In this document: positions 50,094 to 60,697 of the stretch, piece by piece
Position numbering within the stretch: the stretch's first letter is position 1
Layout of the letters: every line of letters begins with the position of its first letter
NCBI GenBank assembly: GCA_000317655.1
Contig: CP003940.1
Span: 2,427,547-2,491,546 of the forward strand
Direction: 5' to 3'
DNA: 64,000 bases
Source: Cyanobacterium stanieri PCC 7202
Lineage (GTDB): Bacteria > Cyanobacteriota > Cyanobacteriia > Cyanobacteriales > Cyanobacteriaceae
The notes under the pieces: model-generated
Told to the model about the DNA's origin: nothing
What the model saw: the letters and a program-made list of their open reading frames with translations, nothing else
Databases searched by the model: none
Position numbers and translations under genes: made by a program

Positions 50094-50103
50094 ATAATTG
50101 ACA

Positions 50104-50622
50104 ATGAATATCAACATAAGTGAGTTAAAATATCAACTTTTTTCGGAAGAAACTCAAATTAGAAAAAACCATAAACAATTAAAAGAAAAATTAAAAGCTC
50201 TTTCTCAAGAATTACAACTAACGATTTTTACCAGTCGTAAACTTGCCATTATGAATGAGATGGATGATATAGAAAAAAAAATTAAAAATGATCTATTGGA
50301 AATAAAGAAGAAAAAAGAAATAATCGAAAAGAAAAAAACACAATCAAATATTAAACAAAATATTAATGAAACTCTGATTTATCGAGAGCAAGAAAAAAAG
50401 ATAAAAGAGAAGGAAAAAATAATTCAAGAGACGAAGAAAATATTTAATAACCATAAAATAGAGCTAAATAATCATAACTTAGATGTTATTGATATAGAGA
50501 TTATTGATAGCAATGAAAATGATTTTGATTATTTATATAAAGAAATAATATCCAAATTAGATAAGAAAGAAAAATTAAAATTAGCAAAAATGTTGTTAGA
50601 CAATATTTTGCCAGAAATATAA
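50104..50622 (+). CDS. Lys-rich coiled-coil protein, unknown
   Basis: The 172-residue protein is almost entirely charged helix (about 20-130, Lys/Glu/Ile-rich), ending in a short segment (L-D-K-K-E-K-L-K-L-A-K-M-L-L-D). Base composition is more AT-rich than its neighbours. It starts at ATG 50104, 11 bases after the PatA-type gene, and may be in its operon. No family recognised. Confidence 0.65.
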   Translation: MNINISELKYQLFSEETQIRKNHKQLKEKLKALSQELQLTIFTSRKLAIMNEMDDIEKKIKNDLLEIKKKKEIIEKKKTQSNIKQNINETLIYREQEKKIKEKEKIIQETKKIFNNHKIELNNHNLDVIDIEIIDSNENDFDYLYKEIISKLDKKEKLKLAKMLLDNILPEI

Positions 50623-55528: not shown

Positions 55529-58500
55529 ATGAATCCTAGTAATAATTATTTATTTAGTATCGATTTTAACCTTTATCAAAAAATGAATGATTTGCCTGTG
55601 AGTTTACGGGCAGATTTACTAGGATATTTTGAGACTATCATCGATAATCCGACTTTTAATAAAGCGGTGAATAAAAAAGCGGAAGATGGATTAAATATTA
55701 TTTATCGTATTAATTATAATTATCGTCTCGAATTAATTGCCATTTCTGTTTATCAAGATGAACAAAAAATAATTAAATTCTTAAGCATTTCTGATAAAAC
55801 TAAACTAAAACAAGCTGTTGTTATTAAAAATAATTTTGCCCATCGCATTATTGATATTGATATTAATTTAGAACAAAAAAATATTAAGCTAAAACCCGAG
55901 CATCTCAAAAAATTTCAAGGCAAAGGTAGTATCAAAATTGGATTAAAAGATTTTCAAGTTCAGGTCAATGATTTTTATCCTTATGTCATTGGTAATGAAG
56001 AGAGTAATATTAGTTTGTCTTCTTTGGTGTCCGCCGAACAAATTGAAGTCATCGAGAGACAGTTACCATTATTATTGAAGGGTAATGGTAAGATGGGCAA
56101 GACAAAAAATTTACTTTTAAAGGCTTTAAAAGAGAGTTTAGATAACCCTTATCAAGATTTGGCAGTAATTAGCACTGATAGCATTAGTCAGTATCGTTTA
56201 CAAAATAGTTATCAACAATTAACAGAAAAATCTAGTCATAATTTACTAATTAATAATTATATTAATGTGATTCGAGCTACTGCTAATAAACTACAATTAA
56301 TTTCTGAAAATAGTTATAGGCGATCGCACCTAATTGATTATAATAAATTTAGGCAATTATTTGTCAGTGATTGGGATTTACCAGAAATCGAAATCATTTA
56401 TTTATGGAACGAAATCCAGTTTATTTTAAAAGGAACAATTAATTATCCCCATGAAAATAACGGATTAATATCCCTAAACAACTACTACCAAGAAATTCCT
56501 CCAGAAAATAAAAGAGTATCTAATCTCGAAGCAGATAATATCTATCGTATAGCCGAAAAATATCAAGACTGGCTCAAAGAAAATCAATACTGGGATATGG
56601 TCGACTTAACCCAAAAAGTTTTAAAAAATTTACCTCCTTATTTTAGAGGGGAATATGACATCATTTTTGCAGATGATATTCATAACCTCAGTGACTTATC
56701 CCTACAACTTCTTTTGCGTTTAGTAAAAATAAATCCAGAGCAAACAAAACCTAACATTGTCTTTACTTACGATGAAGCACAACTACATCATAGTCAGCCC
56801 ACTATTCCAGAAAAACTCAATCAAATATTTAGCCAAATTTTAGAGCAACTAAAACTAAACTCTCTAACGGACAACTTTTCCTCTCCTCTCACCCTAACTG
56901 TTGCCCAAACAGAAAATCAAGAATTAATTGAATTAGAAAAAACTATCGTTGATTTAGAGAAAAAATTAGCATATCAACCAAAAATTAATCACATTATCAG
57001 TACCATTGAAAACTGCCATTGGTTAGTGGCACCCCATGAAAATATTATCGCTGCCCTAGAAGAATTACAACCCGATACCGTCATCATTGTAGCCAACTTA
57101 GAAGAAAAAGAAACCTTCTTACAAGAAGTTGCCAAATCAGACAAAAAAACTGCCCAAATCCTCACAATCCATCAGGTAAATAACTACGAATTTGATAATG
57201 TTATAATCTGGAATTTCTTTAGCTACTTTAATGAAATTAATCCCCAATCCCTACCCCAACTCATTCAACGATACCTATACCCCTGTTTGAATGCCGTAAA
57301 AGATAAAGTATTCTTCTATGAAAAAGACTATGATATTTTTGAACATTATCCCATCCTTACTAACTATATCCATAAATCAGGCATAAAGGCGATCGCCCCT
57401 ATCCTCAATCAAAAAAATAGAGAAGAAATAGAAAAACTAGCCCATAACTATAGCCAACAAGGTGCATGGGAAATCGCCCAACAATGTTACAAAATCCTAG
57501 GCAACCATAAACAAATCAAATATTTAGATACCCCCATCGCCGAATTAATAGGGGAATGGGATAGTGCAGGAGACTTATGGAATCAATGGCAAGAATGGGA
57601 TAAAGCTATCTTGGCATGGCAAGAAATCCATCCCCATCTCTGGCTAGAAAAATGGGCAGAATTAACCCCTAACCAATGGCAAGAAAAAGCAGACTACCTC
57701 GCCCAAAAACATCAATATACCCTCGCAGGAATCTGTTATCAAAAATGTGAAAACACCGAAGGATACCTCAAATGTTTACAAGAAAATAGACAATGGGAAA
57801 CCATCGCCGACATCTATCAACAAAATAACCACCTAGAAAAAGCCCAAGAAAACTATCTCCTTGCCCAAGAATACTACCTGCAACAAAAAAATCTCACCGC
57901 CGCAGGAAAAATGTGGGAAAAACTAGCACAATGGGAAAAAGCCGCCCTCATCTGGGAAAAACTAGGTGCCTGGGAAACCGCTGCCGAAAATTGGATAAAA
58001 GAAAACAACCCAGAAAAAACAGCCCAATGTTACGAAAAAAGTCACCATTGGCATAAAGCCGAAATTTATTGGCGACAACTAAATAAACAACCCCAAATAG
58101 CCCTTGCCTGTGAAAAACAAAAAAAGTGGAAAACCGCTGCCCATCTCTGGCAAAAATTAGAAGCATGGGAGAAAGCCGCCCATTGTTTCACCCAAGCCGA
58201 CGATATTCAAGCCGCCGCCCAATGTTATCAACATGGTATGGCATGGGCAAAAGCCGAAGCCTGTTGGCGACAATTAAATAATCCTCAAAAAGTAGCCATC
58301 ACCTGTGAATGTCAAAATAAATGGTTAGAGGCAGGGGAGATTTGGCAACAATTAGGAGAATGGGTAAGGGCAGGATTTGCTTGGGAAATGGGTACACAAA
58401 TCCAGAAAGCTGCCCAATGTTACGAAAAATCCCAACAATGGGCAAAAGCAGAAGATTGTTGGCGACAATTAAATAATCCCCAAAAAGTAGCCGTCACCTG

Positions 58501-60697
58501 TGAATATCAAAATAAATGGTTAGAAGCAGGAGATATTTGGCAAACCATAGCAGAAACCGAAAAAGCGGCCCTCGCCTACGAAAAAGCAAAAGCATGGCAA
58601 CAGGCTTTGGAATTATGGCAACAACTCCACAACCCCCAAAAAGTAGCCTTTACTTGTTATCAACTAGGCAAATATGAAACTGCCGCCCAAATTTGGCAAA
58701 CCCTCCATCAATGGCAACTAGCAGGGGAAGCATGGGAAAAACAAGGGGATATGGAAAAAGCTATCATGGCTTATGAAAAGGGAGAATATTGGCAAGAGAG
58801 CGAAAACATTTATCGTCATCAACAAAAATGGGCAAAAGTAGCCATAACCTGTGAAAAACAACAAAAATGGTCAGAAGCAGGAGATATTTGGCGAGAATTA
58901 GAGCAAATACCCAACGCTTCCCGTTGTTATGAATTAGCTAGAGACTGGCAAAAAGCCGAAACAGGATGGCGACAACTAAAACAATGGGCTTGTGTAGCCG
59001 TCTGTTGTGAAAGACAAGGCAAATGGTTAGAAGCTGCCCAAGCATGGGAAGAAGTAAACCCCCTCATCAAATCTGCCCTTTGTTACGAAAAAGTAGAAGA
59101 CTGGGAAAAAGCCGAGGCATTGTGGAGACAAGAATCTAACTGGGTGAAAGTAGCAAGGGTATGTGAAGCCCAAGAAAAATGGGCAGAAGCCGCCCAAATT
59201 TGGCAAGATGTGGAAGAATGGGAAAGGTCTGCTAAGATATGGGCAAAAATTAATCAGTTAGAATTAGCCGCCCCCTGTTATGAAAAAGCCCAATTGTGGC
59301 AAGAGGCAGAATACTGTTGGCAACAGGTAGGCAACATCGAAAATTTAGCCCGAATGGCAGAGTCTCGGGGAGACTGGCAAAAAGCCGCCCACATTTGGGA
59401 AGAAGAAAACCAATGGTTTAATGCAGGAAAGGCTTGGGAAAAAGCTGAGGAAATAAAAAAAGCGGCCCTCTGTTTTCAGCAGGATGATAGTTGGCAGGAG
59501 GCACAAAATTGTTGGGCAAAATTAAAAGATTTTCGTCAAGTGGCAATTTGTTGTGAAAAACAAAAGGCTTGGCAACAGGCAGGAGATGCTTGGATAAAGG
59601 TAGGGGAAATCGAAAAGGCGGCCCTTTGTTTTCAACAGGGGGGCAGTTGGCAAGATGCCCAAGATTGTTGGCAGAAGTTACAAAATTATCCCAAGGTGGC
59701 AATCTGTTGTGAAAAACAGAAGGCTTGGCAACAGGCAGGGGAGGCTTGGTTAAAAGCTGATGATGTGGAAAAGGCGGCCCTTTGTTTTCAACAGGGGGGC
59801 AGTTGGCAAGATGCCCAAGATTGTTGGCAGAAGTTACAAAATTATCCCAAGGTGGCAATTTGTTTACAAAAACAGGATATGTGGGCGCAGGCGGCACAAA
59901 CTTGGGAGTCGTTGCAAAATTGGCAAAAGGCGGGAGATGCTTGGTTACAAGCAGGAAATAAGGAAAAATCTGCTCTATCTTATGAAAATTGCGGTTTTTG
60001 GGAAAGGGCAGAAGGCCTCTGGGAAGAATTAGAAAATTGGGAGAAATTGGCTTATATCTGTGAGAAACAGAAAAAATGGCAAAAAGTTGGTTACGCCTAT
60101 CAACAAGCCCAAGAATGGGCAAAATCTGCCCAAATCTATGAACAAATTTCGGCTTATGCAGAGGCGGAAATTTGTTGGCGAGAGTTAAAGGATTGGCGCA
60201 AGGTTGCCTATGCCTGTGAACAACAGTCGAAATGGCAGGAGGCAGGAGAGGCATGGAGTCAGGCTCAAAATTGGTCATCCTCTGCCCTTGCCTATGAAAG
60301 GGGAGCAAATTGGCTTCAGGCTTTTGATGCTTGGGCAAAGATTGATAATTGGCAACAGGGGGCGATCGCCCTTGAACAAGGACAAATGTATTATAAAGCA
60401 GCAGAGATATGGTTAAAAACTGAATTAGAAAATAAAGAAGAAAAAGCAGGATTAAATTATGAACAAGCCCAAGAGTGGCAACTAGCCGAAGAATGTTGGC
60501 GTACAATCTCCCGTTGGGATAAAATCGCTCACTGTTGCGAACAACAGGGAGATGAAAAACTAGATTTAGCCATCGAAGCATGGTTAAATGCAGGGAATAA
60601 ACTCAAAGCAGCAGATTTATTACGTCGTGCAGGTAGATGGAAAGAAGCCGCCCTCGTCATCACAGGTAGAAAAACCGTGATAGTTGAAGGTAAATAA
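55529..60697 (+). CDS. RelE-like / SF1 (UvrD-like) helicase-type protein with long Trp-rich tandem helical repeats
   Basis: The 1722-residue protein appears to have three parts. Residues 1-95 resemble a RelE/ParE-type fold (G-L-N-I-I-Y-R-I-N-Y-N-Y-R, K-I-I-K-F-L-S-I). Residues about 165-630 resemble a UvrD-like SF1 helicase. An intact Walker A is at 185-192 (G-N-G-K-M-G-K-T). A Walker B-like strand ends Asp382-Asp383 (I-I-F-A-D-D-I-H-N-L) where UvrD has D-E. A late motif T-I-H-Q-V-N-N-Y-E-F-D-N-V-I-I (about 546-560) matches helicase motif V. From about 645 to 1700 run short TPR-like helical repeats (A-x-C-Y-E-K-x-x-x-W-x-x-A-E-x-C-W-x-x-L), very rich in Trp, Gln, Ala and Lys. I know of UvrD-like plus TPR combinations (animal TRANK1) and RelE-UvrD fusions, but not this exact protein. 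Helicase activity is uncertain. Confidence 0.88.
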   Translation: MNPSNNYLFSIDFNLYQKMNDLPVSLRADLLGYFETIIDNPTFNKAVNKKAEDGLNIIYRINYNYRLELIAISVYQDEQKIIKFLSISDKTKLKQAVVIKNNFAHRIIDIDINLEQKNIKLKPEHLKKFQGKGSIKIGLKDFQVQVNDFYPYVIGNEESNISLSSLVSAEQIEVIERQLPLLLKGNGKMGKTKNLLLKALKESLDNPYQDLAVISTDSISQYRLQNSYQQLTEKSSHNLLINNYINVIRATANKLQLISENSYRRSHLIDYNKFRQLFVSDWDLPEIEIIYLWNEIQFILKGTINYPHENNGLISLNNYYQEIPPENKRVSNLEADNIYRIAEKYQDWLKENQYWDMVDLTQKVLKNLPPYFRGEYDIIFADDIHNLSDLSLQLLLRLVKINPEQTKPNIVFTYDEAQLHHSQPTIPEKLNQIFSQILEQLKLNSLTDNFSSPLTLTVAQTENQELIELEKTIVDLEKKLAYQPKINHIISTIENCHWLVAPHENIIAALEELQPDTVIIVANLEEKETFLQEVAKSDKKTAQILTIHQVNNYEFDNVIIWNFFSYFNEINPQSLPQLIQRYLYPCLNAVKDKVFFYEKDYDIFEHYPILTNYIHKSGIKAIAPILNQKNREEIEKLAHNYSQQGAWEIAQQCYKILGNHKQIKYLDTPIAELIGEWDSAGDLWNQWQEWDKAILAWQEIHPHLWLEKWAELTPNQWQEKADYLAQKHQYTLAGICYQKCENTEGYLKCLQENRQWETIADIYQQNNHLEKAQENYLLAQEYYLQQKNLTAAGKMWEKLAQWEKAALIWEKLGAWETAAENWIKENNPEKTAQCYEKSHHWHKAEIYWRQLNKQPQIALACEKQKKWKTAAHLWQKLEAWEKAAHCFTQADDIQAAAQCYQHGMAWAKAEACWRQLNNPQKVAITCECQNKWLEAGEIWQQLGEWVRAGFAWEMGTQIQKAAQCYEKSQQWAKAEDCWRQLNNPQKVAVTCEYQNKWLEAGDIWQTIAETEKAALAYEKAKAWQQALELWQQLHNPQKVAFTCYQLGKYETAAQIWQTLHQWQLAGEAWEKQGDMEKAIMAYEKGEYWQESENIYRHQQKWAKVAITCEKQQKWSEAGDIWRELEQIPNASRCYELARDWQKAETGWRQLKQWACVAVCCERQGKWLEAAQAWEEVNPLIKSALCYEKVEDWEKAEALWRQESNWVKVARVCEAQEKWAEAAQIWQDVEEWERSAKIWAKINQLELAAPCYEKAQLWQEAEYCWQQVGNIENLARMAESRGDWQKAAHIWEEENQWFNAGKAWEKAEEIKKAALCFQQDDSWQEAQNCWAKLKDFRQVAICCEKQKAWQQAGDAWIKVGEIEKAALCFQQGGSWQDAQDCWQKLQNYPKVAICCEKQKAWQQAGEAWLKADDVEKAALCFQQGGSWQDAQDCWQKLQNYPKVAICLQKQDMWAQAAQTWESLQNWQKAGDAWLQAGNKEKSALSYENCGFWERAEGLWEELENWEKLAYICEKQKKWQKVGYAYQQAQEWAKSAQIYEQISAYAEAEICWRELKDWRKVAYACEQQSKWQEAGEAWSQAQNWSSSALAYERGANWLQAFDAWAKIDNWQQGAIALEQGQMYYKAAEIWLKTELENKEEKAGLNYEQAQEWQLAEECWRTISRWDKIAHCCEQQGDEKLDLAIEAWLNAGNKLKAADLLRRAGRWKEAALVITGRKTVIVEGK
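59618..59860 (+). repeat. Near-identical 156 bp tandem units inside the giant gene
   Basis: The stretch coding A-A-L-C-F-Q-Q-G-G-S-W-Q-D-A-Q-D-C-W starts at 59618 and again at 59774, period 156 bp (52 residues), with almost identical DNA. A more diverged unit starts near 59462. This indicates recent duplication within the array. Confidence 0.8.

What the first reader, a model, noticed from the sequence alone, without database searches (positions are those of the whole stretch)
55529..60697. A 1722-residue RelE-like + UvrD-like + tandem-repeat protein
Seen: an N-terminal segment with a RelE/ParE-like pattern, a helicase-like module with intact Walker A (185-192) but D-D for D-E in motif II, then about 1,000 residues of Trp-rich helical repeats. 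Known: RelE-like plus UvrD fusions occur in bacteria, and UvrD plus TPR occurs in animal TRANK1. Inference: this protein may sense or remodel nucleic acid or RNP complexes and scaffold partners through the repeats; a role in stress or phage response is possible but not shown. Nothing nearby gives a function.
Basis: partly seen in the sequence, partly recalled or inferred. Interest (0 to 1): 0.78.

Follow-up and report, generated by a model that had tools for sequence, protein, structure and literature searches.

The report
Apparently inactive helicase on helical scaffold
This cyanobacterial protein looks like a toxin-helicase fusion that has lost most of the residues needed for catalysis in both parts but has kept a nucleotide-binding loop and a very regular helical tail of nearly fixed length, so it probably works as a scaffold rather than an enzyme.

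Summary
The ORF and its three segments are real. The N-terminal half is homologous end to end to RelE-UvrD fusion proteins that keep all SF1 motifs in other branches (profile-profile E 2.9e-60). In the focal clade (10 proteins) motif II Glu, motif IV Arg, both motif VI Arg and the RelE-module Arg/Arg/His are replaced, while the Walker A loop and the Asp of motifs II and III stay invariant. The clade groups (96/97) with a second degenerate paralogue found in 15 of 15 family genomes, so loss of catalysis probably began before that duplication. The tail is not ordinary TPR: it is a gap-free lattice of 13-residue modules, 65 here, 69 in most complete orthologues and about 40 in the paralogue, with module order nearly conserved across genera. 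dN/dS of 0.14-0.20 argues against decay. No neighbour family is shared by all nine loci. Best reading: a nucleotide-binding, hydrolysis-dead RelE-UvrD module anchoring a fixed-length helical scaffold. Partner and ligand are unknown, RelE kinship rests on two weak-to-moderate links, and the structure models were too poor to serve as proof.

The parts
55529..60697 (+). the 1722-aa ORF
   Evidence: dN/dS 0.14-0.20 against two same-genus orthologues
55529..55828 (+). RelE-like N-terminal module (residues 1-100); Arg/Arg/His of the active relatives replaced
   Evidence: hhalign to active relatives' N-termini E 7.4e-7 (probability 91.8%) and from those to YoeB-like N-termini E 0.0017 (probability 15.5%); 0 of 150 shuffles reach either score; residue table
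56024..57343 (+). UvrD-like SF1 core, degenerate (about residues 166-605)
56081..56104 (+). Walker A loop GNGKMGKT (residues 185-192)
   Evidence: G185, G190, K191 in 10 of 10 focal-clade rows; T192 in 9, S in 1
56672..56677 (+). motif II D382 D383 in place of D-E
   Evidence: first Asp 10 of 10; Glu 0 of 10 (D5 N5)
57278..57307 (+). motif VI region (residues 584-593), both Arg lost
   Evidence: Arg 0 of 10 at both positions, 9 of 9 in active relatives
57875..60409 (+). gap-free lattice of 65 thirteen-residue modules (residues 783-1627)
59423..59875 (+). tandem 156-bp (52-aa, four-module) units; place where copy number differs between orthologues
   Evidence: 2.9 copies, 84% matches; two units 91.7% identical in DNA
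60410..60694 (+). conserved C-terminal cap (residues 1628-1722)

Best explanation
The gene encodes a double pseudoenzyme scaffold. SHOWN by sequence: its N-terminal half is homologous to RelE-UvrD fusions that are intact in other cyanobacterial branches; the residues for ATP hydrolysis and unwinding, and the Arg/Arg/His of the RelE-like module, are replaced, yet the Walker A loop and the Asp of motifs II and III are invariant in the clade and the gene is under purifying selection. SHOWN: the tail is a very regular array of 13-residue modules whose number and order are nearly fixed between genera, with one irregular outlier. INFERRED: the modules are helices, the dead core binds ATP (or another NTP) without productive turnover, and it acts as a nucleotide-dependent clamp or anchor, perhaps still on RNA, ssDNA or a ribosome/RNP. 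INFERRED: the solenoid, about 33 helical hairpins, is a fixed-length scaffold that holds partners at set positions. INFERRED: it works alongside the second degenerate paralogue (about 40 modules), which is present in every family genome searched.
For: Homology over residues 9-645 to active relatives, E 2.9e-60. Motif II Glu, motif IV Arg and both motif VI Arg in 0 of 10 focal-clade rows and 9 of 9 active rows; G185, G190, K191, D382 and D415 in 10 of 10. No Arg column at 90% or more in the UvrD part of the clade, four in the active set (L040 residues 299, 463, 598, 600). Focal clade plus degenerate paralogue form one branch, 96/97. dN/dS against L035 and L036: 0.199 and 0.189 for the N-half, 0.147 and 0.142 for the repeats. 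Main run of 69 modules in 5 of 8 complete tails (focal included), 68 called in a sixth, 65 in the focal, 61 in one; paralogue 39-40 modules in 12 of 12, two of them split 27+13. Module order nearly the same between genera. The paralogue is also degenerate and present in 15 of 15 family genomes.
Against: No ATP-binding data. Both structure models are of low confidence (mean pLDDT 38.5 and 36.8). The RelE assignment of the focal clade has no direct profile link to YoeB-like N-termini (10 of 150 shuffles reach the direct score), and PDB profile searches with the relatives' N-termini found no RelE structure. A basic residue (R66 or K) two places before the lost second Arg is present in 10 of 10 rows, so that loss could be a shift. 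Some motif positions survive: motif V Thr in 10 of 10, motif III Gln in 2, motif V Gly in 5. One genome (G010) has only a remnant of the focal-type gene and 4 of 15 lack it. One orthologue (L037) has an expanded, irregular tail of about 100 modules. Non-lattice positions of the tail are no better conserved (0.32) than the N-half (0.24-0.36). In the third pair, L035 against L036, dN/dS of tail and N-half is the same (0.161, 0.157).
Confidence: 0.5

Rival explanations
1. A purely structural protein: the N-half is a folded relic with no ligand, and only the helical tail matters.
For: Most helicase motifs are degenerate; tail dN/dS is lower than that of the N-half in two of three pairs; the tail has nearly fixed length and order.
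Against: G185, G190, K191 and D382 are invariant over 10 rows as little as 32% identical to the focal, which a mere relic would not need; N-half dN/dS is 0.16-0.20.
Confidence: 0.2
2. Still an active NTPase or translocase that uses other catalytic residues.
For: Walker A and two motif Asp (D382, D415) are invariant in the clade; other acidic columns are invariant, E295, E526 and E598 among them.
Against: No arginine-finger candidate: no Arg column at 90% or more in the UvrD part; motif IV and VI Arg lost in 10 of 10.
Confidence: 0.1
3. An anti-phage or stress effector descended from defence-type UvrD proteins.
For: The relatives L038, L040 and L062 match GajB-like UvrD models in PADLOC, and L040 matches a phage helicase family (phrog_1967, 5.5e-22); RelE-type toxins are common in conflict systems (passage seen).
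Against: Focal protein and own paralogue match no PADLOC model; no neighbour family shared by all loci; module order and number vary little; the N-half of L040 has no match in the phage records.
Confidence: 0.15
4. A gene in decay.
For: Catalytic residues lost; a remnant in G010.
Against: Open reading frame intact in the focal genome and in 8 further genomes, with one more cut by a contig end; dN/dS 0.14-0.20.
Confidence: 0.03

Closest known systems
RelE-like + UvrD + TPR fusion proteins of cyanobacteria (here L060, L062; L117 has the fusion with few repeats)
   Same: order of domains; homology of the N-half through the active relatives L038, L039, L040, L056
   Different: those keep all SF1 motifs and the RelE-module Arg/Arg/His; L060 and L062 carry ordinary 34-residue TPRs
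UvrD/Rep SF1A helicases (PF00580, PF13361)
   Same: homology of residues about 166-605, by relatives; Walker A loop
   Different: motif II Glu, motif III Gly, motif IV Arg and motif VI Arg absent in 10 of 10; no direct Pfam hit
YoeB/HigB branch of the RelE superfamily
   Same: N-terminal module, by two profile links
   Different: R, R, H of the active relatives are N (10), E (10), K (9; R 1) in the clade
IFT-A and clathrin-leg alpha-solenoids
   Same: short-helix repeats; Pfam Clathrin 5e-15, above cut-off; PDB sequence match to WDR19 at 0.00032, level with a designed repeat protein; IFT-A chains lead the Foldseek list from the weak model
   Different: strict 13-residue period, no WD40 match; TM-scores for IFT-A about 0.1; likeness may be composition or convergence

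Membership tests
UvrD/SF1A helicase | sequence homology to the UvrD core | tested here: met
   through relatives; own paralogue over the PF00580 cut-off
UvrD/SF1A helicase | Walker A (motif I) | tested here: met
   GxxxxGK[TS] in 10 of 10
UvrD/SF1A helicase | motif II D-E | tested here: not met
   Glu 0 of 10
UvrD/SF1A helicase | motif IV and VI arginines | tested here: not met
   0 of 10
UvrD/SF1A helicase | SF1 fold in a reliable model | tested here: inconclusive
   model pLDDT 38.5; weak hits to HelD and 3dmn
RelE superfamily | sequence homology to RelE/YoeB | tested here: inconclusive
   two-step links above shuffles, direct link not; no RelE structure by PDB profile search
RelE superfamily | conserved Arg and His of the active relatives (taken as catalytic by analogy with YoeB, recalled) | tested here: not met
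   N, E, K in the clade; a nearby basic residue remains
RelE superfamily | antitoxin partner gene | tested here: inconclusive
   no neighbour family shared by all nine loci, but only ORFs of 80 aa or more were compared
TPR repeats | 34-residue period | tested here: not met
   periods are multiples of 13, 52 and 65 strongest; Pfam TPR_2 below cut-off
Clathrin/IFT solenoid | Pfam Clathrin score | tested here: met
   55.9 bits against cut-off 29.6; a repetitive sequence, so not proof of kinship
Clathrin/IFT solenoid | structural match | tested here: inconclusive
Gabija GajB-type defence helicase | match to GajB models | tested here: not met
   no PADLOC hit for the focal protein
Gabija GajB-type defence helicase | GajA partner gene | not tested
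   no search for GajA was made
TRANK1-like | orthology to animal TRANK1 | not tested

The most novel reading that the evidence does not exclude
Geminocystaceae cyanobacteria carry a pair of nucleotide-gated molecular rulers: two related double-dead RelE-UvrD pseudoenzymes, each tied to a solenoid of single 13-residue helices of quantised, conserved length (69 and 40 modules, changing in steps of four), which together build an intracellular scaffold comparable in kind to eukaryotic IFT/coat solenoids.
Probability: 0.2. Interest if true: 0.78.

Novelty: new variant of a known kind. Interest (0 to 1): 0.55.

Why it matters
Loss of catalysis in both enzymatic modules of a toxin-helicase fusion, with two copies kept under selection, would be a clear bacterial case of a helicase turned into a nucleotide-binding scaffold. 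A module array whose unit count stays nearly fixed while its non-lattice positions drift to about a third identity points to a length-dependent function that can be tested by removing one 52-residue unit.

Tried and rejected
A pattern scan of genome contigs with the focal N-half found no relative. A tblastn of plasmids gave one weak match, a UvrD-helicase protein of Euhalothece. Pfam, NCBIfam, PADLOC and PHROGs do not name the N-half of the focal protein. AlphaFold2 with 3 and 2 aligned sequences gave low confidence, so the Foldseek lists are weak hints only. PDB profile searches with the relatives' N-termini gave no RelE structure. Neighbourhoods: of the nine focal-class loci compared no neighbour family is in all. 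The photolyase gene is in three (window, L035, L036). L035/L036 and L051/L054 share longer stretches. One family (number 6) recurs in five loci of two genera, and another (number 2) in three loci, at varying places; I did not identify them. The 16 loci of the relatives likewise share no neighbour in common. A first impression that the tail is simply better conserved than the N-half was dropped: the gain is in the lattice positions (0.67); the others are at 0.32 (six tails, eight pairs).

Rows left out of the 31-row table and tree: of 38 related ORFs, one remnant (L042) and nine proteins with a longer N-terminal region (L050, L061, L063, L064, L065, L066, L067, L068, L069), whose helicase motifs look intact. 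L059 entered as L117, the same protein; L116 and L118 were added. L037 (irregular) and L070 (cut) are not among the 8 tails counted as complete and comparable.

Literature, search listings with starts of abstracts: 4 of 4 listed; 15 of 1,218; 14 of 14; 8 of 1,038; 0; 6 of 6; 2 of 2; 4 of 4. None of the listed titles is about a RelE-UvrD-repeat protein of this kind; searches show only a small part. Passages of PMC3710099 and PMC5512222 were seen, no whole paper. Subscription papers are not covered.

Full report
What is there. The ORF at 55529-60697 (+) encodes 1722 residues from an ATG. The window lies at 2427547-2491546 of a 3.16-Mb genome.

What the N-half is. Pfam, NCBIfam and PHROGs give nothing for it. 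A search of 60 relatives found matches in 30, and 15 of 15 genomes of the family match. Aligning the 38 related ORFs found in the fetched stretches showed several classes. Active relatives (L038, L039, L040, L056) keep DE[IV]QDL, GDxAQ, NFRS, KGLE[FY] and TRAR. Another set (L060, L062, L117; L118 and L116 added) has YoeB-like N-termini and intact motifs. A degenerate paralogue class (12 proteins, one in the window's own genome near 2032954) and the focal class (10 proteins) do not keep them. Three of the four active relatives were scanned with Pfam and all three exceed the PF00580 cut-off. L040's N-half matches the focal gene at E 6.8e-40, and 35 of 292 genomes of the phylum in all. The profile of the focal class aligns to that of 9 active proteins almost end to end with E 2.9e-60. 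The degenerate paralogue in the own genome is itself over the PF00580 cut-off (34.1 bits).

RelE-like module. Four YoeB-like N-termini hit YoeB_toxin at E 0.00026-0.021 and HigB at 0.0064-0.074, all under the curated cut-offs. The active relatives' N-termini align with a set of five of these at E 0.0017, hhalign probability 15.5%, and the focal class aligns with the active relatives at E 7.4e-7, probability 91.8%. 0 of 150 column shuffles reach either score. The direct comparison of the focal class with the YoeB-like set fails, and PDB profile searches found no RelE structure. The module is probably RelE-derived, by two links, the second of them weak.

Loss of catalysis. On one alignment of 31 proteins, active rows (9 of 9) have motif II Glu, motif III Gly-Asp and Gln, motif IV Arg, motif V Lys-Gly and both motif VI Arg. 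In the focal class motif II Glu is 0 of 10 (D5 N5), motif III Gly 0 of 10, motif III Gln 2, motif IV Arg 0, motif V Lys 1 and Gly 5, motif VI Arg 0 and 0. It keeps G185, G190, K191, D382, D415 and T546 in 10 of 10 and T/S192. The three RelE-module residues invariant in active rows, R, R and H, are N (10), E (10) and K (9; R 1); a basic residue at position 66 (R5 K5) leaves open a shift of the second. No column of the focal class's UvrD part has Arg in 90% or more of rows; the active set has four. The paralogue class (12 rows) has motif IV Arg 0, first motif VI Arg 0, second motif VI Arg 4, motif II Glu 1, and variable letters at the RelE-module residues. A maximum-likelihood tree of the helicase part puts the focal class (100/100) and the paralogue (93/94) together at 96/97, apart from the active relatives, which are not resolved as one group; L037 is flagged as a long branch. 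So the motif IV and first motif VI Arg may have been lost once, before the duplication. The single motif II Glu and the four Arg left in the paralogue class say that other losses came later or separately.

The tail. There are 90 Trp in the last 1078 residues against 6 in the first 644. Self-identity peaks at multiples of 13 (52, 65, 117, 26...), 0.283 at lag 52 against a maximum of 0.117 in 200 shuffles. From residue 783 to 1627 the sequence is 65 thirteen-residue modules without an insertion or deletion. The modules fall mostly into units that run Y-W-C-W or Y-W-C-W-W at module position 1, hence spacings of 52 and 65. The weak AlphaFold2 model draws them mostly as 10-residue helices with 3-residue turns. 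Tails: 69 modules in L035, L036, L051, L052, L053; 68 called in L055; 65 in the focal; 61 in L054; L037 is an irregular outlier of about 100 modules and L070 is cut by a contig end. The paralogue has 39-40 modules in 12 of 12, split 27+13 in two. The order of module types is nearly the same across genera, and the focal tail differs from the 69-module form by one four-module unit at a place where neighbouring units are near copies. At E 1e-10 the module set is found in 9 of 292 phylum genomes, seven of them of this family. In the own genome only the focal gene and its paralogue match.

Selection and spread. dN/dS (Nei-Gojobori) of the focal gene against L035 and L036 is 0.199 and 0.189 for the N-half and 0.147 and 0.142 for the tail; L035 against L036 gives 0.157 and 0.161. 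The focal-type gene is in 10 of 15 family genomes; G010 has an interrupted remnant 89% identical over 296 residues to the L055 copy, and four lack it, one of these only 67% complete. The paralogue is in 15 of 15; of these the copies in G001 and G012 run to a contig end, G012's covering only the first 180 residues or so, and the G005 copy has internal stops. No neighbour family is shared by all loci.

Mechanism. The catalytic residues are gone but the nucleotide-binding loop is held, the gene is selected, and the tail nearly keeps its length. The most economical reading is a nucleotide-binding, non-hydrolysing anchor on a fixed-length solenoid scaffold. Which ligand and which partners it has is not known. 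The likeness of the tail to IFT-A and clathrin solenoids is a lead only: repeats of this kind score against one another by composition, the model is poor, and TM-scores for IFT-A are about 0.1.

Limits. Homology of the focal N-half to UvrD and RelE is transitive. Structure models are of low confidence. The module model was trained on the focal tail. Counts of catalytic residues depend on the alignment. No experiment was available.

Noticed in passing
L144 (G010:C1:1136000-1145000): A remnant of the focal-type gene, interrupted by stops and lacking most of its length, 89% identical over 296 residues to the copy in G007.
   Followed up: partly
L037 3590-10111 (-): An orthologue of 2173 aa with an insertion of about 100 residues inside the helicase-like part and an expanded, irregular tail of about 100 modules.
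   Followed up: no
L061 and eight similar loci (L050, L063-L069): A further class of UvrD-like proteins with motifs that look intact and an N-terminal region about 140 residues longer, found in several families of the order; not characterised.
   Followed up: no
59418-60581 (-) and 59760-60032 (+): ORFs overlapping the repeat region in other frames, most likely a by-product of its composition.
   Followed up: no
50098-50622 (+): A 174-aa lysine- and glutamate-rich ORF with a TTG start and no Pfam match next to a response regulator with a DUF4388 domain.
   Followed up: no
G000:C1:1128010-1129158: A further UvrD-like match (26.1 bits, open frame 1125 aa) in the own genome, not examined.
   Followed up: no
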